From NCBI GenBank assembly GCA_038888615.1, contig JAWAID010000002.1, positions 689,654-753,653 on the forward strand: DNA of 64,000 bases, written 5' to 3'. The DNA is from Candidatus Korarchaeum sp. (GTDB taxonomy: Archaea > Korarchaeota > Korarchaeia > Korarchaeales > Korarchaeaceae). How positions within the stretch are numbered: position 1 is the stretch's first letter; each line of letters opens with the position of its first letter. The notes under the pieces were generated by a model. That model ran no database searches. It was not told the origin of the DNA and saw nothing but the letters and a program-made list of their open reading frames with translations. Shown piece after piece: positions 49,930-64,000 of this stretch. Position numbers and translations under genes: made by a program.

Positions 49930-51687
49930 TCAACACCCTCTCTCCCTCATCTCCTTTCTTAGCCTCTCAGTAGCTTCGAAGTCCACTTCTAGCGTCTCGG
50001 GATTTATCACAACCCCGTATATCTCCCTAGCCTGCTGAACCGTTACGTAACGGTTCAAGACATCCCATTGAACGAGCTTCGGATCCCTTTCGAGGGGCCT
50101 CCCCCAGCCCCCACCTCCCCCGCTCCTTATGCTCACGATATCACCCTTCAGTAACCTCATATTGAACGCTCTCCCACCGTCCCAGATGACCTTATCATCC
50201 CTGAGGACCACGATGTGATTGCAGGATCCGGGTAAGCCACCATCAACCCCCCACGGAGGGTAGCTTATCCTGTTTATCGAGCAGACGAGCTCAGCTCCCT
50301 CAGCCAGTATCCTGTAGTCCTTCCTCATACCGAACCCGCCTCTGAACCTCCCATGTCCCACGCCATCCTCCAAGTTGAGCCTCATGCACTCGACCCTTAT
50401 GGGGTACTCCCTCTCTATCACCTCAGCAGGGTGCGCGTAGGTCTCACCGTCAGCTGAAGCCACTAGTACGGACTCACCGTCCCTATCGATAGCTGCTCCC
50501 CATCCTCCGGGGTTCGGCTCAACTAAGATCTTGTACTTCTTATCCCTGGGGTCTATCATGCTCAGTGTCTCCGCTACCACTGATAGGAAGTGCCCTGCGG
50601 TGAGCCTCTCGGGTATGTGAGGAGCGAGAGCCTTCCAGATAAGGTCTACAGCATAGAACATGGTCTCCCAGTAGCAACTGGTGGCTGCTGGAGGCACGGC
50701 ATTGAATATGGTACCTTCGGGAGCTATTACTTTAACGGGGTCGAAGTAGCCTTCGCTCACTGAGACGTGAGGATCCGTCACCGCTACGAAGGCTATCGTA
50801 GCCGAAGCGTAAGTTCCTGGGAGTGTCGTATTTATAGGAGCCCTGACCTGCGGCGGGTTCTCCGTGAAATCTGCTATGAATTCATCCTCAGTTATCTTCA
50901 CCCTAACCGTTATCCTTATGTCCTCATCCATCCCCTCGTACTTCTCTATATGCTCCTCAGCGAAGTACTCCCCTTTGGGAAGCTTCTGGAGGTTCTTCCT
51001 CGCTAGCACCCTCCCCTCACTGAGTTTATCCTCCATAGCCTCTCTCACTGTATCAGCACCGTACTTATCACAGAGATCAACTATCCTGCGTTGAGCGTAC
51101 CTCAGAGCTGCAGCCAGAGCTTCTATATCGCCATGTACGTAATCAGGTATCCTGCTATTTCGTAGAACCAGCCTCAGGACATCTATATTGAGCTCGCCCC
51201 TCCTGTAAAGGCGGACGCCGGGTATTATTATCCCCTCCTGATATATCTCTGTCGCGTTTGGACCCCAGCTACCCGGGTTCATGCCTCCAACATCGTTCAC
51301 ATGCCCTCTTATCGCACCTATAGCCATGAGCTTCTCCCTGTAGAATAGGGGCATCACTAAGCCGACGTCGTTCAGGTGGGTACCAGCTATATAGGGATCG
51401 TTCACTAAGTAGATGTCACCAGGCTCCATTCTAGAGCCTTGCTCCTCCAGTAGTTTCATCATGTTCCTTGACATTATCGGGAGTATATCTATGAAGACCG
51501 GAAGCCCTGTCCCTATCGCTATCAGTCTTCCCTCCGCATCGAGGAGAGCGGGTGAGAAGTCGTAAGTCTCGTATATTATGCTGCTTTTAGCTGACCTTAT
51601 GGTGGTGTAGAACATCTCCTTAGCGATGCTCGAAAGGACATTCTTTATTATTTGAATCGTAACAATATCCCTACTCATCAGGACCAC
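49930..51687 (-). CDS. hyuB: Hydantoinase/oxoprolinase beta subunit HyuB
   Basis: The 585-residue B subunit of an ATP-dependent hydantoinase-type enzyme (N-methylhydantoinase, 5-oxoprolinase or acetone-carboxylase-like family). Recognised by GDIYLVNDPYIAGTHLNDVGL (about 91-111), AIGAIRGHVNDVGG, and the C-terminal GGGGWGRPLERDP. It overlaps hyuA by 10 bases, so the two subunits are co-translated. The exact substrate (hydantoins, 5-oxoproline or ketones) is not given by the sequence; near peptide transporters, 5-oxoproline or cyclic imides are plausible. Confidence 0.9.
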   Translation of the reverse strand: MVLMSRDIVTIQIIKNVLSSIAKEMFYTTIRSAKSSIIYETYDFSPALLDAEGRLIAIGTGLPVFIDILPIMSRNMMKLLEEQGSRMEPGDIYLVNDPYIAGTHLNDVGLVMPLFYREKLMAIGAIRGHVNDVGGMNPGSWGPNATEIYQEGIIIPGVRLYRRGELNIDVLRLVLRNSRIPDYVHGDIEALAAALRYAQRRIVDLCDKYGADTVREAMEDKLSEGRVLARKNLQKLPKGEYFAEEHIEKYEGMDEDIRITVRVKITEDEFIADFTENPPQVRAPINTTLPGTYASATIAFVAVTDPHVSVSEGYFDPVKVIAPEGTIFNAVPPAATSCYWETMFYAVDLIWKALAPHIPERLTAGHFLSVVAETLSMIDPRDKKYKILVEPNPGGWGAAIDRDGESVLVASADGETYAHPAEVIEREYPIRVECMRLNLEDGVGHGRFRGGFGMRKDYRILAEGAELVCSINRISYPPWGVDGGLPGSCNHIVVLRDDKVIWDGGRAFNMRLLKGDIVSIRSGGGGGWGRPLERDPKLVQWDVLNRYVTVQQAREIYGVVINPETLEVDFEATERLRKEMRERGC

Positions 51688-53771
51688 CTCCTATTCGGAA
51701 TCAGGATAATATTCCCAAAATCATCGTGACGGGCTTTAAAGTTCTTGGTGACGACGGTTGTGGCTGTATCTCCCTCAATTATGCAGGGCCCCTCTACAGC
51801 GACCCCGGCTGGTAGGAGCTCTTTCTTGTAAACCGGGACGTTGAACTCACCCCCATCCACGAATAGCACCCTCTCCCCTAGGAAAGCTCGGTTAAGCGAA
51901 CCCGTAGTGCTGATCCTCGATAGCTCCGGGGGCCTCACTCTATGGATCCCCACCACATGGAAACCAACTATCTCCATCCCGCTATCCGGTAAGCTGAACC
52001 CGTACTCATCGTAGTGAGCCTTATGGAACCTTTCAGCAGCTTCCTTAAGATGCTCAATACCTACCCTCCCATTGTAGCAGGGTACCTTGAGAGTATGGGC
52101 CTGTCCCTCGTACCTTATGTCCAAGTACCTCTCTATCATAACACTAGATGGATCCACACCTTCCAGCTTGAACATCTCCCTAACCCTGGACTCCAGTTCC
52201 TCGAACTTCGAGTTCACATAGTTGGTATATGCTTCATCTAGCTTAAGCGATGATATATCAGTCAAGGATAGCTCGTGCCTTATGTCAAGCCCGATCATCC
52301 CCCAGCTATTGAAAACTCCGCTTGGAATAGCTGGAACTATTATCTCCGGTATCCTGAGCTCCTCTGCTATGAAGGGAGCGAACATCGGGCCTGCTCCACC
52401 GTGAGCTATTAGAGTGAATTCCCTAGGATCATACCCCCTCTTAACAGAAATTTGCCTTATGAGGTTTGCAGCGTTATCGTTAGCTAACCTCACTACCCCG
52501 TAAGATGCTTCTCTCTCATCTAAGTTCAGTTTCTTAGCGATGCTCGACATCGCTCTGTGAGCGAGTTCCTTGAAGACCTTAAGCCTCCCGCCTAGCAGGT
52601 ACTCAGGGTTGAGGAAGCCCGAGAGCACGTAAGCATCTGTTAGCGTGGGTTTATCTCCCCCTTGCCCGTAGCATGCAGGACCAGGTCTGGCGCCTGCAGC
52701 ATGAGGCCCTACTCTGAGGTTCCCTGCATCATCGATCCAGACTAAGCTAGTTCCCCCTAAACCTATCTCAGTTATGTCGAGCGTAGGTACTCTTAAGGGG
52801 TAACCTGCATTCCAATCGTCCTGCTCTATCCAGTACTCAGTGTAAACTTTAGGAGTGAGTTCCTTAGCGAGTCCGGCTTTGGTAGTCGTGCTTCCACCAT
52901 CTATCACTATTATGTTCCTTCCCCCTAGGATCGACGATAGCCTGATGCCCCCTATTATCCCAGATATAGGCCCCCCCTCTATGGTGAATATCGGGTACTT
53001 CTTAGCGTACTCTGAGGTGACCATACCCCCTGCTGAGAGGGTTATATAGAATACCCCATTGAACCCTCTCTCGCTTAGGGCATTTTCTAGTTTCTGAATG
53101 TACTTTACAAAGATTGGTTGAACGTACGCATTTAAGACCGCTGTATTGAACCTCTCATATTCCCTCCATTCACGGTTGAGTTCGCTGGAGGCGGTTACAT
53201 ATGGGGTTATACCTCTCTCCCTCAGAACGTCCTCCACGATCTTCTTAGCTCTCAGCTCATGCTCTGGGTTTATATAGCTATTTATGAAGCCGATCGCGAA
53301 GGATTCAGCGCCTTTCCTAACTAACGATTCAACAGCGTTTCTGACAGCCTCTTCGTCTAGGGGTTTATAGATGCTTCCGTCCGAATCGATACGCTCCGGG
53401 ATCCACTCAGTCATGTACCTAGGGACGAAGGGTGTTGGTTTCCTGTACCTAAAGTTGAAAATATCTCTCCTATTAGCTCTTTGAATCTCCAACGTGTCGA
53501 AACCTTCTGTGGTTATGAAGCCGACTCTCGCACCGGTTCTCGTGGTGATAGTGTTTATGACTACCGTCTGTCCGTGGATCACTTGAATCATATCCTTCAC
53601 GTTTACGCCCCTGCTCTCGAGCTCCTCTACTCCCTCTATCACACCCTTCTCGAAATTCGGCGGAGTGGATTCTATCTTTATCCACCTCTCTTCGTGAGCT
53701 CCCTCGACCGTGACGGCGTAGAGATCCGTGAAAGCCCCTCCTATATCGATACCGACCTTCCATCTTACCAT
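51678..53771 (-). CDS. hyuA: Hydantoinase/oxoprolinase alpha subunit HyuA
   Basis: The 697-residue ATP-binding A subunit. N-terminal Hydant_A_N motif KVGIDIGGAFTDLYAV (about 4-19) and HGQTVVINTITTRTGA (about 65), then the ATPase core with VIDGGSTTTKAGLA, GLGGTSLVWID, and AGARPGPACYGQGG near residue 355. Its upstream region is AT-rich and carries the promoter for hyuAB and the cupin gene. Archaeal hydantoinase pairs act on varied cyclic amides, and none is fixed here. Confidence 0.92.
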   Translation of the reverse strand: MVRWKVGIDIGGAFTDLYAVTVEGAHEERWIKIESTPPNFEKGVIEGVEELESRGVNVKDMIQVIHGQTVVINTITTRTGARVGFITTEGFDTLEIQRANRRDIFNFRYRKPTPFVPRYMTEWIPERIDSDGSIYKPLDEEAVRNAVESLVRKGAESFAIGFINSYINPEHELRAKKIVEDVLRERGITPYVTASSELNREWREYERFNTAVLNAYVQPIFVKYIQKLENALSERGFNGVFYITLSAGGMVTSEYAKKYPIFTIEGGPISGIIGGIRLSSILGGRNIIVIDGGSTTTKAGLAKELTPKVYTEYWIEQDDWNAGYPLRVPTLDITEIGLGGTSLVWIDDAGNLRVGPHAAGARPGPACYGQGGDKPTLTDAYVLSGFLNPEYLLGGRLKVFKELAHRAMSSIAKKLNLDEREASYGVVRLANDNAANLIRQISVKRGYDPREFTLIAHGGAGPMFAPFIAEELRIPEIIVPAIPSGVFNSWGMIGLDIRHELSLTDISSLKLDEAYTNYVNSKFEELESRVREMFKLEGVDPSSVMIERYLDIRYEGQAHTLKVPCYNGRVGIEHLKEAAERFHKAHYDEYGFSLPDSGMEIVGFHVVGIHRVRPPELSRISTTGSLNRAFLGERVLFVDGGEFNVPVYKKELLPAGVAVEGPCIIEGDTATTVVTKNFKARHDDFGNIILIPNRRWS

Positions 53772-53956
53772 TGGTCAACCTCCCGCTGCGACATAGAGCA
53801 CATTATAGCTCCCGATAGGAACATAATAAAAACATTTTGGTCTTCAAAAATAAAAAAGTTTGATAGTCTACGGTAAATATTATAAACTATATTACACTTA
53901 TACTCATGAGGAGAATGAAATTGCGTCGTAATGGTTCCCCTCAACCTCTCCGAGTA

Positions 53957-54925
53957 TCACCTCCCCGCTAAGTGACATGCAACGATATGTGATGAGTCCC
54001 CCCTCACTACCTCCAGTTTTGGTTCCTCATTCCTACAGATATCCTCCACGAAAGGACATCTAGTGTGAAACCTGCATCCTGGGGGTGGGGATATCGCACT
54101 GGGTATCTCCCCTACGGATCTAACTTTCCTGGGTTTGAGTTTCCTCTCCTCCTCCGTGAGTACCGGTATTGAGGAGAAGAGCATCATCGTGTAGGGATGC
54201 AGGGGGTTAGTGAATAGCTCATCGGATGCCGCCAGTTCTACTATCTTACCCAGGTACATCACAGCTATTCTCTTAGAAATATTCTTAGCTACGGCCAGAT
54301 CGTGTGTAATGAATATGTAGGTTAGCTTCATTTCCTCTTGGATCCTGAGTAAAAGCTTGACTATCTTCGCTTGGGTGATCACGTCTAACGCTGAAGTAGG
54401 CTCGTCTAGGACTATGAGCTTAGGACTCGTGGAGAGCGCTCTAGCTATAGCTATAGCTTGCAGCTCTCCTCCACCGAGTTCCCTGGGCTTCCTGTACATG
54501 TAGCTCTCTGGAGGAAGATCAACGCTCTCTAGTAATTTTGCAACTCTCTCCTCAAGCTCATAGTCATCCTTAATACCCTTCAGCTTCAATTGAGCTGTTA
54601 TTATGTCTTTAACATACTTAGAGGGGTTCAACGATGATGCCGGATCTTGGAAGACTATCTGTATCTCATGCCTCACTTCCCTAGGCCTCTTATCTGCAAG
54701 GGAGGAGATGTCCTTATCTCTGTATAAAATTTTACCTGAAGTTGGGGCATACATACCGACTATGAGGTGTCCCGTAGTGCTCTTCCCCGAGCCGGATTCC
54801 CCCACCAAACCGAAGGTCTCCCCCTCCTTGACATTGAAGGTTATATCATCTACCGCCTTAACTGTTCCATAATTTGTATTGAAATACTTCTTTAAATTTA
54901 GGATTTTTAGTATATCTTCCGTCAT
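53957..54925 (-). CDS. oppF: Oligopeptide ABC transporter ATPase OppF
   Basis: The 322-residue second ATPase of the peptide importer. Walker A GESGSGKS (about 39), Walker B LIVLDEPTSALDV (about 173), and H-loop FITHDLAVA are normal, and the C-terminal FeS/Zn-like C-x5-C-x6-C region (GCRFHTRCPFVEDIC) is the Opp hallmark. The ABC signature reads LGGGELQ, with Gly where the phosphate-contacting Ser of LSGGQ is expected. The partner OppD has a normal LSGGMRQ, so one ATP site may be weakened. Last gene of the oppABCDF run. Confidence 0.92.
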   Translation of the reverse strand: MTEDILKILNLKKYFNTNYGTVKAVDDITFNVKEGETFGLVGESGSGKSTTGHLIVGMYAPTSGKILYRDKDISSLADKRPREVRHEIQIVFQDPASSLNPSKYVKDIITAQLKLKGIKDDYELEERVAKLLESVDLPPESYMYRKPRELGGGELQAIAIARALSTSPKLIVLDEPTSALDVITQAKIVKLLLRIQEEMKLTYIFITHDLAVAKNISKRIAVMYLGKIVELAASDELFTNPLHPYTMMLFSSIPVLTEEERKLKPRKVRSVGEIPSAISPPPGCRFHTRCPFVEDICRNEEPKLEVVRGDSSHIVACHLAGR

Positions 54926-54936
54926 CTAACATCACC

Positions 54937-55920
54937 CTAATAGTTGTAGCAAGCAACCCAATGGGTCTCGGAGATCCGCTGGAGCGGGGGTCTAGATAGG
55001 GCACAGCGAGGTTTACGCGTCTCGAAGTACTTACACCTCGATTGGAACCTGCAGCCTTGTGGAGGGTTGATGTAGTCGGGTACCCTCCCGAACAACGCTT
55101 CGGCTTCCCACCTTCCCGTTAACTTAGGTGCTGAAGATACTAAAGCCCTTGTATAGGGATGAAGTGGGTCATTGAATACTTCCTCTGTTCTCCCAACTTC
55201 CGCTATTTGGCCAGCGTACATCACGTACACTCTATCCACGAACTCGCTTAGCATACCTAAGGCATGTGACACCAATATCACAGAGAGCCTCCTCTCATTG
55301 ACTAAGTCCCTGAGGAGATTCAGTACCTGCTCCTGTATTGTGACATCCAAGTTCGTTGTCGGCTCATCTGCAAGCAATAGTTCATTCGCTCGGGTTAGAG
55401 CGAGAGCTATGCAGACCCTCTGTCTCATCCCCCCGCTTAGCTGGAAGGGGTAGCTGTCGAGGACCCTCTCGGGATCTGGTAGAGCTACCTCCTTGAGTAA
55501 CCTTATGCTTACCTCTCTTAGATCCTCCTTCCTCAGGGCCTCAGCACTACCGAACATCTTCGAGTACTTTATCGCATCATACAGCTGATCCCTCACCCTC
55601 AGGAATGGATTCAGAGCACTCATCGGATCCTGGAAGATTATACCGATGCTCTCCCTCCTCACCTCATTGAGGATGTCTTTGCTAGCGTCCAGCATGTTTA
55701 CATCCTTGAAGAACACCTTCCCGGAGTATATGATAGCGTTAGGAGGTAATATCCTCAGTATAGACCTGAGTAAAGTCGTCTTACCGCATCCGGTCTCTCC
55801 TACTACCCCTATCTTCTCTCCTTTCGAAACCTCTATAGCTACGCCATCCAGGACCTTCGAGGGCCCTCTATACGTCCTGTAACCTACTGAGAGATCCTCC
55901 ACCCTGAGTAGACTCTCCAT
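54937..55920 (-). CDS. oppD: Oligopeptide ABC transporter ATPase OppD
   Basis: The 327-residue ATPase partner of OppF. Walker A GETGCGKT (about 40), signature LSGGMRQRVCIALAL (about 162), Walker B LLLADEPTTNLDV (about 180), H-loop SHALGML, and the C-terminal cysteine set (PPQGCRFQSRCKYFETRKPRC). It stands 11 bases from oppF and 11 from oppC. Together the two ATPases drive uptake of short peptides. Confidence 0.93.
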   Translation of the reverse strand: MESLLRVEDLSVGYRTYRGPSKVLDGVAIEVSKGEKIGVVGETGCGKTTLLRSILRILPPNAIIYSGKVFFKDVNMLDASKDILNEVRRESIGIIFQDPMSALNPFLRVRDQLYDAIKYSKMFGSAEALRKEDLREVSIRLLKEVALPDPERVLDSYPFQLSGGMRQRVCIALALTRANELLLADEPTTNLDVTIQEQVLNLLRDLVNERRLSVILVSHALGMLSEFVDRVYVMYAGQIAEVGRTEEVFNDPLHPYTRALVSSAPKLTGRWEAEALFGRVPDYINPPQGCRFQSRCKYFETRKPRCALSRPPLQRISETHWVACYNY

Positions 55921-55931
55921 CTCTATTCACC

Positions 55932-56831
55932 CTAATAGCGTTCCTCTGAGAACACGTCCTTTATTCCATCTCCCAGCAAGTTGAATCCCAAGATTATTAT
56001 TGAGATCGTCATCGCGGGGAATATGGTGACCCACCAGCTCGCGGGGAGTAGGTGCGATCCCTCAGCGACCATGGTCCCTAGGTCAGGAGTTGGGGGTTGC
56101 GCTCCGAGACCGATGAAGCTCAGAGCCGCTCCAACTAAGATCACCCAGCCTACATCCAGCGTTGCCTTCGTAAGTATCGGACCTAGGCAATTGGGCAGTA
56201 TCTCCTTGAACATTATAGCCAGCTTGTTCACCCCTGTTATCTCTGAGTATATCACGTAGTACTCGTTCTTGAGGGAGGAGACTGTCGAGTAGGCCAAGCG
56301 AGCGTACCAAGGCCACCAAGTCAGGGAGACAGCTATCATTGAGTTTATCATGCTGGGCTTCATCACAGATGCTATCGCGAGTGCCATCACGAGCGGAGGA
56401 ACGGAGACGAAGATATCCGAGAGCCTCATCACTATGTGGTCTATTAAGCTACCTCTGAAGTACCCTGCTAGCACGCCTAGGATGACTCCTGTAGGTATCA
56501 CCAGCGGTAGCACGACTCCTACGAGTATGAAGGAGTACCTCATCCCGAAGATAACCCTACTCAATACATCCCTACCGTAGTGGTCAGTACCGAACGGGTG
56601 CTTGAGGCTGGGAGGTTGTAAAGCTTCATCTAAGTTCACGTACCACCCGGCGTGCTCAGGATACGGAGCAATGAACGGTGCTAATACCGCGAGCAATACG
56701 CAGGTGGCTGAGATAGCGAAACCAACTATCGATAGCGTACTTTTCGAGAATCTGAACCACCACTTCTTAAGCGTCTCTCTCCAAAGCTCGAATTTGCTTA
56801 TTTCTCTCTCTTTAATTTTAAACTCCTGCAT
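55932..56831 (-). CDS. oppC: Oligopeptide ABC transporter permease OppC
   Basis: About 299 residues, with an N-terminal helix and six transmembrane segments. The OppC landmark HPFGTDHYGRDVLSRVIFGMR is at about residues 79-99, and the EAA-like coupling loop is EITGVNKLAIMFKEILPN. The ATG at 56831 is preferred over the GTG at 56840 because GAGGTGAT lies at the right distance. It pairs with OppB to form the channel. Confidence 0.92.
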   Translation of the reverse strand: MQEFKIKEREISKFELWRETLKKWWFRFSKSTLSIVGFAISATCVLLAVLAPFIAPYPEHAGWYVNLDEALQPPSLKHPFGTDHYGRDVLSRVIFGMRYSFILVGVVLPLVIPTGVILGVLAGYFRGSLIDHIVMRLSDIFVSVPPLVMALAIASVMKPSMINSMIAVSLTWWPWYARLAYSTVSSLKNEYYVIYSEITGVNKLAIMFKEILPNCLGPILTKATLDVGWVILVGAALSFIGLGAQPPTPDLGTMVAEGSHLLPASWWVTIFPAMTISIIILGFNLLGDGIKDVFSEERY

Positions 56832-56841
56832 GATTATCACC

Positions 56842-57873
56842 TCAAGAACTCCTCACACCGTGTCTTATCCTTGGATCGAGCCATATCACCATCAGATCCA
56901 CGATAAAGTTAGCTATTGCGTAAACAACACCGACTACGAGGACCACAGCCACTATAGCATTCAGGTCCTTGTTCAACATGGCGGTGACCCCGTACCTCGA
57001 GAACCCCGGCCAGTTGTACACGTTTTCGACGAGGAACGCATTAGCTAGATCGGCACCTACGCTCATACCCATCGCCGTGATGGCGGGAATTGAGGCGGGC
57101 TTCAGCTGATACCTGAGGACCCTCAACCTGAAGGGTAGCCCAAGAGCATCGCCAAGAAGCATGAAGTCCTTCCCCCTGATATCGGTCATACCCATCCTGA
57201 GAATCCTCGCGTTCTGCATCATCGAGCCAAATGACAGGGAGAGTGCGGGTAGTATCGTATGGTGAAGCGCATCCATGAAGCAATCGAGCCTCCCTGAGAT
57301 CAAGGAGTCGAGCATTATGAACCCGGTTATCTGAGGTGGAGGGATTACCTCGGGGCTTAATTGCCCTCCGGCTGGGAACAGTGGGATAGCACGAGCAAAT
57401 ATGAGTTGTAAGATGATTGCCCAGACAAATGCGGGCATTGAGATAGCTACGTAAGCTAAAACTCTCACTACGTTGTCCGGCAACCTGTAGGGGAACGCCC
57501 CCGCAAGCGTACCTAAGATTATTCCCCCGAGGATCGAGAATATCTCTGTGAGTAGTATGAGCTCCAGCGTCTTAGGAAGGTACTGCATTGCATCTATGGT
57601 AACGCTCCTCCTCGTGTAGATAGAGTAACCGAGATCCCCCTTAAGTACATCACTCAACCAACTTACGTACTGCAGGGGTAGTGGTTTGTCCAGACCCAGC
57701 TTCTTCCTCATGGCTTCTACTGCGTAATCCGGAGCCGCCCATCCCGCAGCCATCCTCGCGGGATCTCCCGGGAGAACCCTTGCTAGTACGAAGATGAGCA
57801 CCGATAGACCGAAGAGAGCGAATAGTATCAAGAGTATCCTGCTGGCGATAAACCTCATGAGATCTCTTCTCAT
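56842..57873 (-). CDS. oppB: Oligopeptide ABC transporter permease OppB
   Basis: About 343 residues with six transmembrane helices. The N-terminal MRRDLMRFIASRILLILF and the loop with MTDIRGKDFMLLGDALGLPFRLRVLRYQLKP (EAA-type coupling loop) identify OppB. The ATG at 57873 has GGGGAGAAGG upstream; the longer frame to 58023 would add 50 residues of antisense-like leader and is rejected. It lies after oppA with an 82-bp AT-rich gap that may hold a secondary promoter. Confidence 0.92.
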   Translation of the reverse strand: MRRDLMRFIASRILLILFALFGLSVLIFVLARVLPGDPARMAAGWAAPDYAVEAMRKKLGLDKPLPLQYVSWLSDVLKGDLGYSIYTRRSVTIDAMQYLPKTLELILLTEIFSILGGIILGTLAGAFPYRLPDNVVRVLAYVAISMPAFVWAIILQLIFARAIPLFPAGGQLSPEVIPPPQITGFIMLDSLISGRLDCFMDALHHTILPALSLSFGSMMQNARILRMGMTDIRGKDFMLLGDALGLPFRLRVLRYQLKPASIPAITAMGMSVGADLANAFLVENVYNWPGFSRYGVTAMLNKDLNAIVAVVLVVGVVYAIANFIVDLMVIWLDPRIRHGVRSS

Positions 57874-57955
57874 ACCCTTCTCCCCGCTCCCACATAACCA
57901 TAAATATTTAACAAATTTTATCATAAAAGAATAAAAGGGGATTTTATGAAGGGGA

Positions 57956-59665
57956 TCATCCCTTAAGTTCCATGAACCTGAAGTCGTACATGTACTGTAC
58001 TGCATAAGGCGGTTTGCCCTCACCGGCTGGCCAGCTGATTATATAGTCCTTCCTGTAAAGCACCGCCATTCCGTAGTCAAAAGCAACTATCTCAGGCACC
58101 ATAGAGTTTATAACTTCGAGAATATTCTTGTACTTACTGAATCTCGCGCTCTGATCCACTGTCGATAGAGCATCGTCTATCATCTTATCGATCGTTGAGT
58201 TCAGGAGCCAAGATACATGGATCAGCGACTTACCTGCGTACTTTGAATGGAACTTCAGCTCTAGGTAACTTCCAACCTCGGGGAACCATGGTGTGGAGAG
58301 CAGGACCGTAATATGAGGTGTCGATTCTACTTTGAATGTCGCATCATATATGGATGCCCATGGTTTCTTGACGACCTCTATCTTCAACTTAGGATCGAGC
58401 TCCATGACCGAAGTGGCGAAGACTACCGAGGGTTTCTCCTCGAACGCCGCCTCAGCACACCACCATAGTTCTATCGGATATTTATCGAGTTCGTTGTAGT
58501 ACTTCGACTTCCTGAGCTCTTCCCTTGCTAACGCTAAATTCCTAGTGTAGTAAGTGACATCCTTTGGCGCACCTGGAATGTACCTTGCCACAGGACCTAT
58601 GGCGGGTTGGCTGAACTCCTCCAGGAAGGCCTTTCTAGCTTGCTCATAGTCTAGAGCGTAGGCTAGAGCCCTCCTAATATGGACGTCATCTAACGGGGGC
58701 CTCTTCGTATTCAGGACGAATACGAACTGCTGCCCGAAGAGTTGGTTAGATACCCCTACACCCTCCCTTCCCATCATCTCCTTAATTGTCTCCGCTGGTA
58801 ATGTGTAAGTTATATCTATCTCCTTCCTCAGCAACATGCTAACCTGAGTCGCTGCCTCAGGCGCAGGGAGTATCGTTACCTCGTCGGGAGCGTTCGGATT
58901 CACATAGCCCCAGTAATCCTTGAACCTCTCTAAGACGAGCCTCTCGCCCACTAAGTGCTCCTTTATCTTATAGGGCCCGGAACCAGCGTCATGTGTGAGA
59001 AGCCACTCCTTCCCATAGTCACCCATCTCCCCGTACTCGCCAGTGGGTTTGATGTGCTGCTTAACCTCCTCACTATCCAACACGTAGAACGTACTGAGAG
59101 CGTACAGGAAAGGTCCGTACACTTGCTTCATTTTTATCTCAACTGTGTAGTCGTCTATCGCCTTTATGCTATCTACTATCGGAGCGAATATCGCTGCAGG
59201 CCCTTGGCCGATCTTCAGAAGCCTCTCCATCGAGAATACAACGTCCTTCGACGTAAGTTCTCTGCCGCTGTGGAACTTCACACCCTTCCTGAGGTAGAAC
59301 TTATAGGTCAGACCATCGCTTGAGACATCCCACCTCTCGGCGAGACCCAGCTTCGGATCTATATCGCCCGCAAGGCCCAGTCTGACGAGCGTATCATAAG
59401 TATTTTGAACAGATTGGTAACTTGCCCAATCTAGTATTACCGCAGGATCCATTTGAATTGGAGCTGTTAGGAATACCCTAAGTGTCTTCTTAGCTGGAAC
59501 TGTAGTTGTTGGGGGAGTGGTCATCTCGGTAGGTGTTGTTGTGGGCGTAGTCGTTGGAGATGTTGGCGTTGGAGTTGCTGCGGGAGGTAGTGTTAGGAAG
59601 TAGGCTGCGGCTCCAATTATGATAATCAGAACAAGGATCGCTAAGATTAACTGAGTTCGAGTCAC
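57956..59665 (-). CDS. oppA: Oligopeptide-binding protein OppA (membrane-anchored)
   Basis: The 569-residue extracellular peptide-binding protein. An N-terminal anchor (LILAILVLIIIIGAAAYFL) is followed by a Thr/Pro-rich linker of about 35 residues and the SBP family 5 fold (DLVRLG region, LAERWDVSSDGLTYKFYLRKGVKFHSGRELTSKDVVFS, split). The family signature is at about residues 116-150. It has the same anchor-plus-linker build as LivK and PstS in this window. It heads the opp operon and is probably controlled by the palindrome at 59693. Confidence 0.93.
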   Translation of the reverse strand: MTRTQLILAILVLIIIIGAAAYFLTLPPAATPTPTSPTTTPTTTPTEMTTPPTTTVPAKKTLRVFLTAPIQMDPAVILDWASYQSVQNTYDTLVRLGLAGDIDPKLGLAERWDVSSDGLTYKFYLRKGVKFHSGRELTSKDVVFSMERLLKIGQGPAAIFAPIVDSIKAIDDYTVEIKMKQVYGPFLYALSTFYVLDSEEVKQHIKPTGEYGEMGDYGKEWLLTHDAGSGPYKIKEHLVGERLVLERFKDYWGYVNPNAPDEVTILPAPEAATQVSMLLRKEIDITYTLPAETIKEMMGREGVGVSNQLFGQQFVFVLNTKRPPLDDVHIRRALAYALDYEQARKAFLEEFSQPAIGPVARYIPGAPKDVTYYTRNLALAREELRKSKYYNELDKYPIELWWCAEAAFEEKPSVVFATSVMELDPKLKIEVVKKPWASIYDATFKVESTPHITVLLSTPWFPEVGSYLELKFHSKYAGKSLIHVSWLLNSTIDKMIDDALSTVDQSARFSKYKNILEVINSMVPEIVAFDYGMAVLYRKDYIISWPAGEGKPPYAVQYMYDFRFMELKG

Positions 59666-59692: not shown

Positions 59693-59714
59693 TAGGGAGT
59701 CACGTGACTCCCTA
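59693..59714 (-). promoter_or_regulatory. 22-bp perfect palindrome upstream of oppA
   Basis: Half-site TAGGGAGTCAC followed by its exact reverse complement GTGACTCCCTA. It lies 28 bp upstream of the oppA start codon. A minus-strand TATA-like TTATATTA is at about 59734-59742, which puts the predicted RNA start near 59712, inside the palindrome. Either a repressor site or a 5'-terminal mRNA hairpin; repressor is the more likely. Confidence 0.7.
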
Positions 59715-59974
59715 GCCGCTGCACTTCACCTTGATTAATATAAATGTTTCCAGCTCGATTTTCGTCTTAATCTTGCAAAATAATTTTCTTTAATTATGTT
59801 TTGTTCACTACATTATATCACCAATAATGAATTTTAAGGAAATTTTATTTTGAATAGTTGCTGTTATTCCACAGTAATTTAATGAAAAACCAAGATTTTT
59901 ACTAAAAAATTTTTAAAAAGAGGTCGCTTGACATGAGTCATAGGGAGTTCCTCCGAGGGAGTCTTGAGAGAATT
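59715..59974. other. AT-rich intergenic stretch
   Basis: Very AT-rich and gene-free. It holds the oppA promoter on the minus strand (near 59738) and, on the plus strand, a TATA-like AATTTTTAAAAAG near 59908-59920 whose predicted RNA start (about 59940) would transcribe the riboswitch fragment that follows. Confidence 0.45.
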
Positions 59975-60059
59975 CTAAGAGAGCAGCTTGTGCGCTGCCG
60001 ACCCCTAGAACCTGATCCGGGTAATGCCGGCGTAGGGAGAGCGCCCTTCTCCTTATGCT
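59975..60059 (+). ncRNA. Truncated TPP riboswitch copy (relic)
   Basis: A 77-bp block (59983-60059) is identical to 61631-61707 of the intact TPP riboswitch, and similarity extends a further 8 bp to the left with two mismatches. It retains the side hairpin GCAGC-(N6)-GCTGC, CCTGATC, GGGTAATGCC, CGTAGGGA and even the expression platform with its ATG. It lacks the 5' half: the P1 strand, the 5' P2 strand and most of the GGCTGAGA element (here CTAAGAG). It therefore cannot fold the full thiamine pocket. No thiamine gene follows; the ATG at 60055 opens only 24 codons. Confidence 0.8.
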
Positions 60060-60223
60060 TCACGCGAAAATAATCTCTTATCATCCTGTAAGGGTTTTTG
60101 GTCAAGGGCAGAGCCCAGTGCCGATATAGAGATCTGCAACTTCCCCTCCAAATACTCAACATGCTTCTTACACCCCTTGCATACTACGAAGTGCTTGCTC
60201 GTCTTAGGGGAGCGGATTCCCCG
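60053..60223 (-). other. In-frame open stretch after the serK-like stop
   Basis: Downstream of the TGA at 60224 the same minus-strand frame stays open for about 57 codons to a TAA at 60053. It contains KTSKHFVVCKGCKKHVEY, which looks like a small zinc-ribbon beginning, but it has no start codon of its own. It could be the remnant of a separate gene cut short by the riboswitch fragment, or chance. Confidence 0.25.
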
Positions 60224-60520
60224 TCAGGCCACCCTGATCACATCCTCCTTCGAGATCGAGCAGTCATCCCTCCAAGCTTCCACGCATATATCATCCGATC
60301 CATAGTCCACTAGCACTACTGGAATGAACTCGCATCCCAATTCTCTCAACGCTTGGAGTCTGTGATGGCCGTCTATCACTATCATCGTCCTCCCATCGGC
60401 TAGAATGGGTCTCCTCAACTTTCCCTCCCTCAGGATGTCCCCCTTAATTTCCTTAATCCTCTCCCTTTCAGTCATCTCATGGACCCTGAGCACGCTGATC
60501 CTGAGGAGGACCGCCCTCAT
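60224..60520 (-). CDS. SerK-like ParB-fold protein (free serine kinase type), short form
   Basis: A 98-residue ParB/sulfiredoxin-fold protein. It aligns with the catalytic half of the ADP-dependent serine kinase SerK of Thermococcus kodakarensis: a Glu in RVHEM (E15, matching the catalytic Glu), PILADGRTMIVIDGHHRLQALRELG with the DGHHR motif (50-54), then VVLVDYGSDDICVEAW. SerK makes O-phosphoserine for cysteine synthesis, and a cysteine synthase gene starts 64 bp away in the opposite direction, which supports the call. SerK is about 240 residues, so this one lacks the C-terminal domain. A plain ParB-like protein is the alternative. Confidence 0.65.
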   Translation of the reverse strand: MRAVLLRISVLRVHEMTERERIKEIKGDILREGKLRRPILADGRTMIVIDGHHRLQALRELGCEFIPVVLVDYGSDDICVEAWRDDCSISKEDVIRVA

Positions 60521-60583: not shown

Positions 60584-61517
60584 ATCATTGATCTGATAGG
60601 CAGAACCCCTCTAGTTAAGATTAAATATATTGAACCCCAACCCCAAGGTCGAGATCTACGCTAAGCTGGAAGGTCTCAACCCGGGAGGCTCCGTAAAGGA
60701 TAGGATCTGCTTGAGGATGATAGAGGAGGCTGAGAAGGAGGGCAAGCTCACTAGGGACAAGGTGATACTGGAGCCCACCTCGGGCGACACGGAGATCGGT
60801 CTGGCCATGATAGCTGCGGCTAGGGGTTACAGATGCCTGTTGGTGATGCCCGCTAGCGTCAGCCTGAGGAGGGTCCTCATGCTGAAGGCTTACGGTGCTG
60901 AAGTGATACTCACTCCCCCGGAGAGGCGGACGGCGCTACACTCGAGGCCAAGCGCATCTACGAGCGGGATCCGAATTCCTACTTCATGCCCGATCAGTTC
61001 GATAATCCAGCTAACCCGAGGGCCCATTATGAAACCACGGGGCCTGAGATATGGCAGGACACCGATGGCAGGGTAACTCACTTAGTCGAGGGTTGGGGAC
61101 CAGCGGTACCTTGATGGAGCCGGGAGGTACCTCAAGGAGAGGAAGTCCAGCGTTCAGCTGGTGGCTGCTGAACCCGAGCTGGGGCATAGGATACAGGGAC
61201 TGAAGAACATGAGGGAGGCCATCGTTCCAAAGATATACGACGAGTCCCTGGTAGATAAGGAGATAGAGGTGAGCACTCAGGTAGCTTACGAGTGGACGCT
61301 CATGCTAACGAGGCAGGAGAGTATATTCGCTGGTCAGTCGTCGGGCGCCGTTATGTATGCGGCCGCTAAGGTATCTGAGGAGCTGGATAGCGGGTTGATA
61401 GTGGCGGTCCTCCCGGACTCCGGGTTCAAGTACCTGAGCGGTCCTCCTTACTACGATGAGGAGATCGTGAGGAGGTTCCTGGAGGCTAGGGGGAGAGGTG
61501 TTAGCGTGAGGATCTGA
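60584..61517 (+). pseudogene. Cysteine synthase (O-phosphoserine/O-acetylserine sulfhydrylase), frameshifted
   Basis: Homology to a full PLP-dependent cysteine synthase runs through four reading-frame changes near 60632, 60926, 61091 and 61115. Pieces in order: [39 protein letters not shown] with the PLP lysine; [20 protein letters not shown] and [20 protein letters not shown]; and GAGRYLKERK to the end, including IFAGQSSGAVMYAAA. No standard start codon opens the first frame. The substrate loop reads SGDTE instead of the usual SGNTG. Many lesions plus an altered active-site loop favour a true pseudogene; base-call errors clustered here are the alternative. Confidence 0.82.
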
Positions 61518-61561
61518 GCGTCCATAGCTATGGACGCTCAACTCGCGAATGAGCTGGAAAA

Positions 61562-61570: not shown

Positions 61571-61592
61571 TAAATGCTACGCGAAACCTCAG

Positions 61593-61707
61593 AGGGCGCC
61601 GGGGGAGCTGGGGGAAACCCGGCTGAGAGGGCAGCTTGTGCGCTGCCGACCCCTAGAACCTGATCCGGGTAATGCCGGCGTAGGGAGAGCGCCCTTCTCC
61701 TTATGCT
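61593..61707 (+). ncRNA. TPP (THI-box) riboswitch
   Basis: Complete TPP aptamer at 61593-61695. P1 pairs AGGGCGC (61593-61599) with GCGCCCT (61689-61695). P2 pairs GGGG with CCCC. The conserved CTGAGAG, ACCTGATC, GGGTAATGCC and GCGTAGGGA elements are present, with an extra P3a hairpin GGCAGC-TTGTGC-GCTGCC. An alternative hairpin GGAGA (61684-61688) with TCTCC (61696-61700) abuts the ATG at 61703 and competes with aptamer folding, so control of translation initiation is likely. TPP is expected to turn the operon off. In archaea this element was known mainly from Thermoplasmatales. Confidence 0.93.
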
Positions 61708-63013
61708 GGCTATCCCCCTCCGGCGTCTTCTGGAGGGGAAGGACGTGGAGAGGAGAGGGTTCCTGAGAGCTCCGCCTGAGTGGGGAATCGAGCCGGTCAG
61801 CGAGGAGGTGAGGGTACTCAGGGGGATAGACTTTTTCTTCCTCTGGTTCAGCCTGGGAGTCGGCTTACTCGTCCTACAGGCAGGAGCCCTGCTAATACCA
61901 TCCCTCACGATAGGGCAGGCGTTCGCTGTATCGCTAGTGGGCTCCCTGATAGGAAGCCTTCTGCTCGCTCTAGCTGGCACAATAGGATCAAAGCACGGAG
62001 TTCCTACGATGGTCTCGCTAAGACCGATCTTCGGTACCTACGGCTCCTATCTAGCCACCTCGCTGAACTTCCTCCAGCTCGTGGGCTGGACTGCCTTTGA
62101 GCTGAAGGTGATGGCGGACTCCGCCTCGCTCATATGGGGTGGAGAGGGCCTCAGAGCCCTATGGCTCATCCTCTTCTCACTCATCGTTTATGGCCTGTCG
62201 TTAGGAGGGCCTCTCGCCTTCGTAAGGAAGTGGATAGAGAGGTTCGCTGTCTGGCTAGTTATAGCCTCGACCCTATGGATAACTTACCAGGTCTCAACTC
62301 AGGAGGTAAGCTCAGCTGCCACCGGCGAAATCCCCCTCACGCTAGCTCTAGATCTTGTAATAGCAATGCCTATCTCCTGGATGCCCCTGGTATCTGACTA
62401 CAACAGGTTCGCTAGCAAGGTGAGGTCCGGCTTCCTAGGAACCTTGGCAGGTTACACAGCGGCCAACACCTGGTTCTACTTCCTGGGAGCAGCTCTAGCA
62501 GCTATCTCGGGCCAGGAATTCGTAGCTGCCTCCATACTCGGGCTATACCTGGGAAGTGTGGCTCTGCTAGCGATACTCGTCGACGAGACCGATAATGCCT
62601 ATGCTGACGTCTACTCCTCGGCCCTCTCCCTTCAGAACGTCTTCCCGAAGTTGAGGCAGTGGAAGATAATGCTGGCCGTGATAGTGGTATCGGCTGCCCT
62701 AGCCTACTCGGTGCCTTTAGCTAACTACGAGTGGTTCCTCCTGATGATAGGAGCTTCCTTCGTTCCGCTGTTCGGAGTAGTCATCTCGGATTACTTTTTG
62801 GTGAGGAGGGCTGGCCTCAACGTTGAGGAGTTCTACGGGGGAGCCCCTAAGCTCGTTTGGAGGTCCATCCTCTCCTGGCTCCTGGGCCTTCTCACCTACT
62901 TCGCTATTGCGTTATACGCGCCTGAGCTTGGAGCAAGCTTACCCTCCTTCCTCGTCTCGCTAGCCGCTCAATACGTGATGGGGAGGTGGAAGCGTGGTTT
63001 GGATAGATCTTAA
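61703..63013 (+). CDS. cytX: NCS1-family transporter, CytX-like (thiamine precursor uptake)
   Basis: A 436-residue membrane transporter with about 12 helices of the nucleobase-cation-symport-1 family. Recognisable stretches are the amphipathic start ([27 protein letters not shown], split) and [15 protein letters not shown] near residue 230, the NCS1 signature. Preceded directly by a TPP riboswitch and followed by thiD-thiN, it probably imports hydroxymethylpyrimidine (as CytX does) or thiamine. The ATG lies inside the riboswitch expression platform. Its 3' end overlaps thiD by 20 bases. Confidence 0.88.
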
Positions 63014-64000
63014 GAGGGTTCCAGTCGCCTTAACGATAGCTGGAAGCGACTCCGGGGGAGGTGCGGGAATACAGGCAGATCTCAAGACATTCGCTGCCCT
63101 TGGGGTGCATGGCACCGTGGCAATAACATCGATAACTGCCCAGAACACGAGAGAAGTTACTGCGGTTCAGGACGTGAGCGTTGATGTCATAAGGGCCCAG
63201 ATAGAGGCTGTGGTTAGTGACATAGGCGTTGATGCCGCTAAGACCGGGATGCTTCACACATCGGAGATAATAAGGGCCGTGGCCGAGGAGGTCAGGAGGC
63301 ACCGTTTCCCCCTGGTCGTTGACCCCGTCATGATAGCGAAGAGCGGCGCCCCTCTCCTTAAGGAGGAGGCGGTGAAATCCCTTATCGAGGAGCTCCTCCC
63401 CCTTGCTGAGGTCGTCACGCCGAACGCGAGGGAAGCGGAGGTCCTCTCAGGCATCAGCGTGAGGAGCTTGGATGACGCTAGGAGGGCAGCTAAGCTGATA
63501 GCGGAGCATGGGCCGAGGGCTGTGATAGTGAAGGGAGGCCACTTGGAAGGAGGCGAAAGTATAGATGTGCTCTATGATGGTGATTTCACGGAGCTCAGGG
63601 CTGAGAGAGTGGGGAGCAGGAACACGCATGGGACGGGATGCTCCTTCTCAGCTGCTATAGCTGCTGAGCTTGCTAAGGGGAGGAGCATCAGGGAGGCTTT
63701 CAGAACAGCGAAGCTCCTCGTCACCGAGGCCATAAGGTACGGATTGCCTGTGGGAAAGGGGCATGGCCCTCTGAACCCAATGGCCCTTCTTTACAAGGAA
63801 TCGGAGAGGTATAGCACGATCCTAAGGGTAACTGAGGCTGTCAGGATACTTGAGAGCATAGATGACGCGACGAAGATAACTCCTGAAGTCGGTATCAACG
63901 TTGCAATGAGCTTACCTTACGCTAGCAGCCCGCAGGATGTAGCCGCTATCCCGGGGAGGATGCACCTCGTCGGAAGGAAGCTCAGGGCCTCAGCTTACCC
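62994..64000 (+). CDS. thiDN: ThiD-ThiN bifunctional thiamine synthesis protein (3' truncated by window)
   Basis: Starts at GTG 62994 with GGGAGGTG upstream, inside the end of the transporter gene, and runs off the right edge with at least 335 codons. Residues about 8-255 are hydroxymethylpyrimidine (phosphate) kinase Thi[41 protein letters not shown], and [11 protein letters not shown]. From about residue 275 a ThiN domain (thiamine-phosphate synthase type, [34 protein letters not shown], split) begins. The fusion makes HMP-PP and joins it to the thiazole, completing a two-gene salvage operon with the upstream transporter. Confidence 0.93.

What the first reader, a model, noticed from the sequence alone, without database searches (positions are those of the whole stretch)
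59975..60059. Truncated identical copy of the TPP riboswitch without a thiamine gene
77 bp identical to the intact element, including the platform ATG, sits 1.65 kb upstream between unrelated genes, and its 5' half is gone. Either a recent segmental duplication is being lost, or the copy still folds its hairpins and acts as a decoy, sponge or competitor.
Basis: seen in the sequence. Interest (0 to 1): 0.7.

Follow-up and report, generated by a model that had tools for sequence, protein, structure and literature searches.

The report
Decayed duplicate of a thiamine riboswitch
A dead second copy of a vitamin-B1-sensing RNA switch lies 1.65 kb from the working one in a Korarchaeum-like archaeon; two sister species carry the same relic in different states of decay, so it is most likely an old duplicate whose shared half was copied over from the working switch, and not a new regulator.

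Summary
The repeat is real: 59975-60059 matches 61623-61707 at 83/85 positions, with 77 bp exact. The second copy (T) even scores 55.2 bits as a TPP riboswitch, just above Rfam's cut-off of 54.3. The 5' half is not cleanly gone. A weakly detectable remnant remains, but P1 and P3 no longer pair and the ligand motif CUGAGA reads CUAAGA. T also lacks the Shine-Dalgarno hairpin of the intact leader (I) and is followed by no thiamine gene. It is not an assembly artefact: two sister species carry T at the same place, next to a SerK-like/CysK gene pair. In G005 the 5' half has been replaced by a fusion into a hydantoinase gene; in G011 the core has drifted to 85% identity. No species keeps the ligand-binding parts, which argues against a TPP decoy or sponge. 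T is nearly identical between G000 and G005 although the adjacent flank differs by about 25% (P about 1e-5 for neutral drift). This points to gene conversion from I in an old relic, not to a recent duplication. The 'platform ATG' is probably not the permease start; in G011 its frame ends after 14 codons. Ordinary genome decay; low interest.

The parts
59945..60056 (+). T: decayed second copy of the TPP riboswitch (full extent matched by the Rfam model)
   Evidence: cmscan RF00059, 55.2 bits, gathering 54.3
59945..59974 (+). T, decayed 5' part: place of the 5' strand of P1 and P2 and of P3; weak similarity to the intact element, pairing mostly lost
   Evidence: shuffle tests 24/2000 and 9/500; pair check
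59975..60059 (+). T, preserved 3' part: 83/85 identical to 61623-61707, exact from 59983
60030..60058 (+). Stem-loop GCGUAGGGAGAG-CGCCC-UUCUCCUUAUGC, predicted to compete with the aptamer and the dominant fold of T
   Evidence: identical copy at 61678-61706
60089..60520 (-). ParB-fold, SerK-like gene remnant; reading frame broken after 98 aa, homology continues to 60089
   Evidence: tblastn of G005 protein, 74% over 145 aa; weak Pfam ParB_N match, below cut-off, in the G005 copy
60615..61517 (+). CysK-like pyridoxal-phosphate enzyme, frame broken (pseudogene)
   Evidence: tblastn; TSGNTG of G005 reads TSGDTE here
61591..61704 (+). I: intact TPP riboswitch aptamer
   Evidence: cmscan RF00059, 76.1 bits; aligned with 18 further leaders
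61715..61738 (+). Hairpin CCCCTCC...GGAGGGG containing a Shine-Dalgarno-like GGAGGGG; probable expression platform of I, absent from T
   Evidence: position; alignment of 19 leaders; role inferred
61703..63013 (+). Permease of the cytosine/purine/thiamine family (PF02133); true start probably GTG 61745
   Evidence: Pfam; homologues align from residue 11 in G005 and G011
62994..63998 (+). ThiD-ThiN fusion (phosphomethylpyrimidine kinase plus thiamine-phosphate synthase), cut by window end
   Evidence: Pfam PF08543 and PF10120

Best explanation
T is a dead relic of a TPP riboswitch, left when a segment carrying a SerK-like/CysK gene pair and the permease's riboswitch came to lie together in the ancestor of three Korarchaeum-like species. 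It has since decayed separately in each. In G000 the 5' half drifted beyond function while the 3' half was overwritten by gene conversion from the intact copy 1.65 kb away. In G005 the 5' half was replaced by a fusion into a hydantoinase-B gene at a short shared sequence. In G011 the whole copy drifted and a transposon destroyed the neighbouring genes. Shown: the repeat, the orthologous position, the three states, and the loss of pairing and of the ligand motif. Inferred: gene conversion, the microhomology-mediated deletion, absence of function, and how the duplicate first arose.
For: Same fragment, orientation and neighbours in three genomes: G000, G005:C18:4208-4283 and G011:C31:7726-7766; right flanks homologous (0/500 shuffles for G000/G011 and G005/G011). 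A class-wide search of 26 genomes finds no other fragment away from contig ends except a 30-bp chance match at G005:C13. In G000 P1 and P3 are mispaired and CUGAGA is CUAAGA; G40 and G42/A43 of this motif contact TPP (PMC7824784). T_G000 and T_G005 differ at 2 of about 59 positions, whereas the adjacent flank differs at about 25% (P about 9e-6 for neutral drift). T matches its own genome's I at the variable site TAGAACC (G000) or TCGAACC (G005), and in G000 also in the variable loop. The SerK-like and CysK genes beside T are broken in G000 and destroyed by an IS607-type element in G011.
Against: Gene conversion rests on few informative sites: one substitution, plus the loop in G000. The G005 loop may derive from the hydantoinase gene. 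Selection on T in G000 and G005 would give the same level of conservation. The coding neighbour SerK differs by only 11-14% between the two; against a 13% rate the P value is 0.013, not 1e-5. The weak 5' similarity could be chance (P about 0.01-0.02). G005 is a 63%-complete assembly.
Confidence: 0.8

Rival explanations
1. T is under selection as a functional RNA (decoy, sponge or competitor for TPP or for the intact leader).
For: 77 bp exact identity; conserved in G000 and G005 against a diverged flank; still above the Rfam cut-off.
Against: Ligand-binding half lost in G005 and altered in G000; core drifted in G011. Predicted fold of T is the alternative hairpin, with near-zero probability for aptamer helices P1, P2 and P3. 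No gene downstream on the + strand until the CysK remnant at 60615.
Confidence: 0.05
2. A recent segmental duplication in the G000 lineage alone, now being lost.
For: Near-identity of T and I in G000.
Against: T is present at the same place in G005 and G011; outside the 85 bp no similarity beyond the weak 5' remnant is found between the flanks of T and I.
Confidence: 0.07
3. The 3' half of the riboswitch is an attachment site: an integrated element carrying the SerK-like/CysK pair left direct repeats on both sides.
For: T and I are direct repeats flanking the pair; G010 (K. cryptofilum-like) and G012 have cupin-TPP-permease without the pair.
Against: No integrase or other mobility gene seen between the copies in G000 or G005; no other partial copies in 26 genomes; G001 and G004 keep the pair elsewhere without a riboswitch.
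Confidence: 0.08

Closest known systems
TPP riboswitch (THI element, Rfam RF00059)
   Same: The 3' half is identical to a functional-looking TPP aptamer; Rfam model matched end to end.
   Different: P1 and P3 lost, ligand motif changed, no expression platform, no target gene.
Pseudogenes homogenised by gene conversion with a functional paralogue (general phenomenon, from my own knowledge)
   Same: Decayed copy with a tract identical to the working copy in the same genome.
   Different: Here the unit is a riboswitch leader, not a gene; I found no paper describing such a case, but that search was small.
SerK (archaeal free serine kinase, ParB fold; PMC5120207)
   Same: The neighbouring ParB-fold gene pairs with a CysK-like gene, as would suit cysteine synthesis from O-phosphoserine.
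   Different: Only about 145 aa in G005, weak Pfam match (20.7 bits, cut-off 26.3); the assignment is by inference.

Membership tests
TPP riboswitch RF00059 (copy T) | Covariance-model score at or above the gathering cut-off | tested here: met
   55.2 vs 54.3 bits, carried mainly by the identical 3' half
TPP riboswitch RF00059 (copy T) | Closing helix P1 pairs | tested here: not met
   3 of 5 P1 pairs non-standard, predicted probability 0
TPP riboswitch RF00059 (copy T) | P3 helix and CUGAGA pyrimidine-binding motif | tested here: not met
   2 of 5 P3 pairs broken; CUAAGA instead of CUGAGA
TPP riboswitch RF00059 (copy T) | P4/P5 arm with GCG pyrophosphate-binding motif | tested here: met
   sequence identical to I, though not the predicted fold
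TPP riboswitch RF00059 (copy T) | Expression platform and thiamine-related gene downstream | tested here: not met
   homology stops at 60059, before the hairpin found at 61715-61738 in I; next gene is on the other strand
TPP riboswitch RF00059 (copy T) | Binds TPP | not testable with these tools
   needs in-line probing or SHAPE
TPP riboswitch RF00059 (copy I) | Score, helices, motif and downstream thiamine-type gene | tested here: met
   76.1 bits; only one P1 pair and one P2 position off; PF02133 permease and ThiD-ThiN follow

The most novel reading that the evidence does not exclude
T links the SerK-like gene to the thiamine permease by antisense. The SerK-like gene runs on the minus strand towards T (its stop lies 24 nt from T in G005), so read-through transcripts would carry about 75 nt complementary to the aptamer of the permease leader and could silence or unlock it in trans.
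Probability: 0.03. Interest if true: 0.6.

Novelty: new member of a known kind. Interest (0 to 1): 0.2.

Why it matters
It is a small natural experiment on how a riboswitch dies: one relic in three sister species, drifted in one, cut in another, and half-overwritten by the working copy in the third. It also warns that a riboswitch call just above the Rfam cut-off can be a relic. It changes nothing about known riboswitch mechanisms.

Tried and rejected
Assembly artefact: rejected, because three separate assemblies carry the copy at the same place. Mobile or att-site fragment: no further copies in 26 genomes of the class; the G005:C13 hit is a 30-bp chance match inside what looks by reading like an LSm-type gene. 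Downstream peptide starting at the copied ATG: only 24 codons in G000, and ACG in G005. Covariation test of the alternative hairpin: not run, because the paired columns hardly vary within the genus and the sequence is not kept in G022 and G023. Which arrangement is ancestral (with or without the inserted segment) could not be decided: G010 and G012 lack the SerK-like gene, the close CysK and hydantoinase B, while G001 and G004 keep the SerK-like/CysK pair elsewhere. Literature searches for riboswitches in Korarchaeota or for pseudo-riboswitches gave nothing relevant. One hmmscan call failed for a wrong frame and was redone; one script failed and was redone.

Full report
Observation. The window lies in a 1.67-Mb archaeal genome (G000). 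Its relative G010 is a single contig of 1,590,757 bases, the size I recall for Candidatus Korarchaeum cryptofilum OPF8, so I call the group Korarchaeum-like; the name itself was not checked. The repeat is as described: 59975-60059 and 61623-61707 are 98% identical over 85 bp, 1648 bp apart, with 77 bp exact from 59983 to 60059 and no identity beyond. Rfam calls both copies TPP riboswitches: 76.1 bits for the intact copy I (61591-61704) and 55.2 bits for the second copy T (59945-60056), against a cut-off of 54.3.

The 5' half of T. It is decayed rather than cleanly absent. Left of the repeat, weak similarity to the intact 5' half remains (local test 24/2000 shuffles, anchored test 9/500; 0/500 when the first eight bases of the repeat are included). 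Pairing is lost: three of five P1 pairs and two of five P3 pairs are non-standard, and the aptamer's P1, P2 and P3 helices have predicted probability of about zero. T folds instead into the hairpin at 60030-60058. The ligand motif CUGAGA reads CUAAGA; G40 hydrogen-bonds and G42/A43 sandwich the pyrimidine of TPP (PMC7824784), and the motif is described as universally conserved (PMC9544697).

The intact leader. I precedes a PF02133 permease and a ThiD-ThiN fusion. The conserved CTCCTTATGC at its 3' end pairs with GCGTAGGGAG and so probably forms the alternative hairpin. The next hairpin, 61715-61738, holds a Shine-Dalgarno-like GGAGGGG before a GTG at 61745. The 'platform ATG' at 61703 is probably not the start codon, since in G011 its frame stops after 14 codons and permease homologues in G005 and G011 align only from residue 11. 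T ends before the second hairpin, so it lacks this platform. The mechanism of I is inferred from folding and alignment only.

Relatives. A DNA search of the genus finds T-like fragments in two sister genomes. In G005:C18 the fragment lies 24 bp from the end of a SerK-like gene (minus) followed by CysK (plus); a separate contig, G005:C7, holds the end of CysK, then the intact riboswitch and permease. In G011:C31 a 41-bp core at 85% identity lies beside a remnant of the same gene end. Right flanks are homologous (0/500 shuffles for G000/G011 and G005/G011). So T predates the split of these species. In G005 its 5' half is replaced by hydantoinase-B sequence, joined within GCAGCTGGTGGCTGC, which resembles both the gene (GCAACTGGTGGCTGC in G000) and the riboswitch loop (GCAGCTGGTGTGCTGC): a microhomology deletion is the likely cause. 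In G011 an IS607-type TnpA/TnpB element has replaced most of the SerK-like gene and the start of CysK. In G000 both genes are broken, and the CysK motif TSGNTG has become TSGDTE, which looks like real decay and not only sequencing error.

Why the identity. T_G000 and T_G005 differ at 2 of about 59 core positions, while the next 164 bp differ at about 25%. Neutral drift at that rate would give two or fewer differences with P about 9e-6; at the 13% rate of the SerK coding region P is 0.013. T carries its own genome's base at the variable A/C site in G000 and G005, and its own loop in G000. Gene conversion from I fits best, because only the 3' half is preserved and because G011's copy drifts. Selection on T cannot be excluded formally.

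Origin. G010 and G012 have the cupin gene next to riboswitch and permease, without the SerK-like gene, the close CysK or hydantoinase B. G001 and G004 keep the SerK-like/CysK pair elsewhere. A tandem duplication of a unit ending at the riboswitch, followed by loss of its left part, would put T where it is; this is inference. No other T-like fragment was found in 26 genomes of the class, which speaks against a mobile or att-site element.

Verdict. A non-functional riboswitch relic, probably refreshed over its 3' half by gene conversion.

Noticed in passing
61678-61738, L001, alignment A1: Leaders of this genus share an aptamer, a competing hairpin (GCGTAGGGAG with CTCCTTATGC) and a hairpin covering a Shine-Dalgarno-like motif, ahead of permease or solute-binding-protein genes: a plausible translational TPP switch. 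No paper on it was found in the library.
   Followed up: partly
61515-61540 and 59693-59714: Two perfect palindromes: TGAGCGTCCATAGCTATGGACGCTCA at the end of the CysK remnant, and TAGGGAGTCACGTGACTCCCTA in front of the solute-binding-protein gene (possible operator).
   Followed up: no
49930-59665; G000:C2:188495-198974; G014:C64:3637-15287: A hydantoinase A/B plus peptide-type ABC transporter cluster; a second set at about 46-50% identity occurs elsewhere in G000 and in G014; G010 and G012 have no hydantoinase B.
   Followed up: partly
L045:7296-8758, L046:2645-4109: The SerK-like/CysK pair is divergently arranged in G001 and G004 too, with a ThiF/MoeB-like gene (by reading) next to it in G001.
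   Followed up: no
L026:5842-7603 (-): IS607-type element (MerR-resolvase TnpA plus TnpB) inside the former SerK-like/CysK region of G011.
   Followed up: yes
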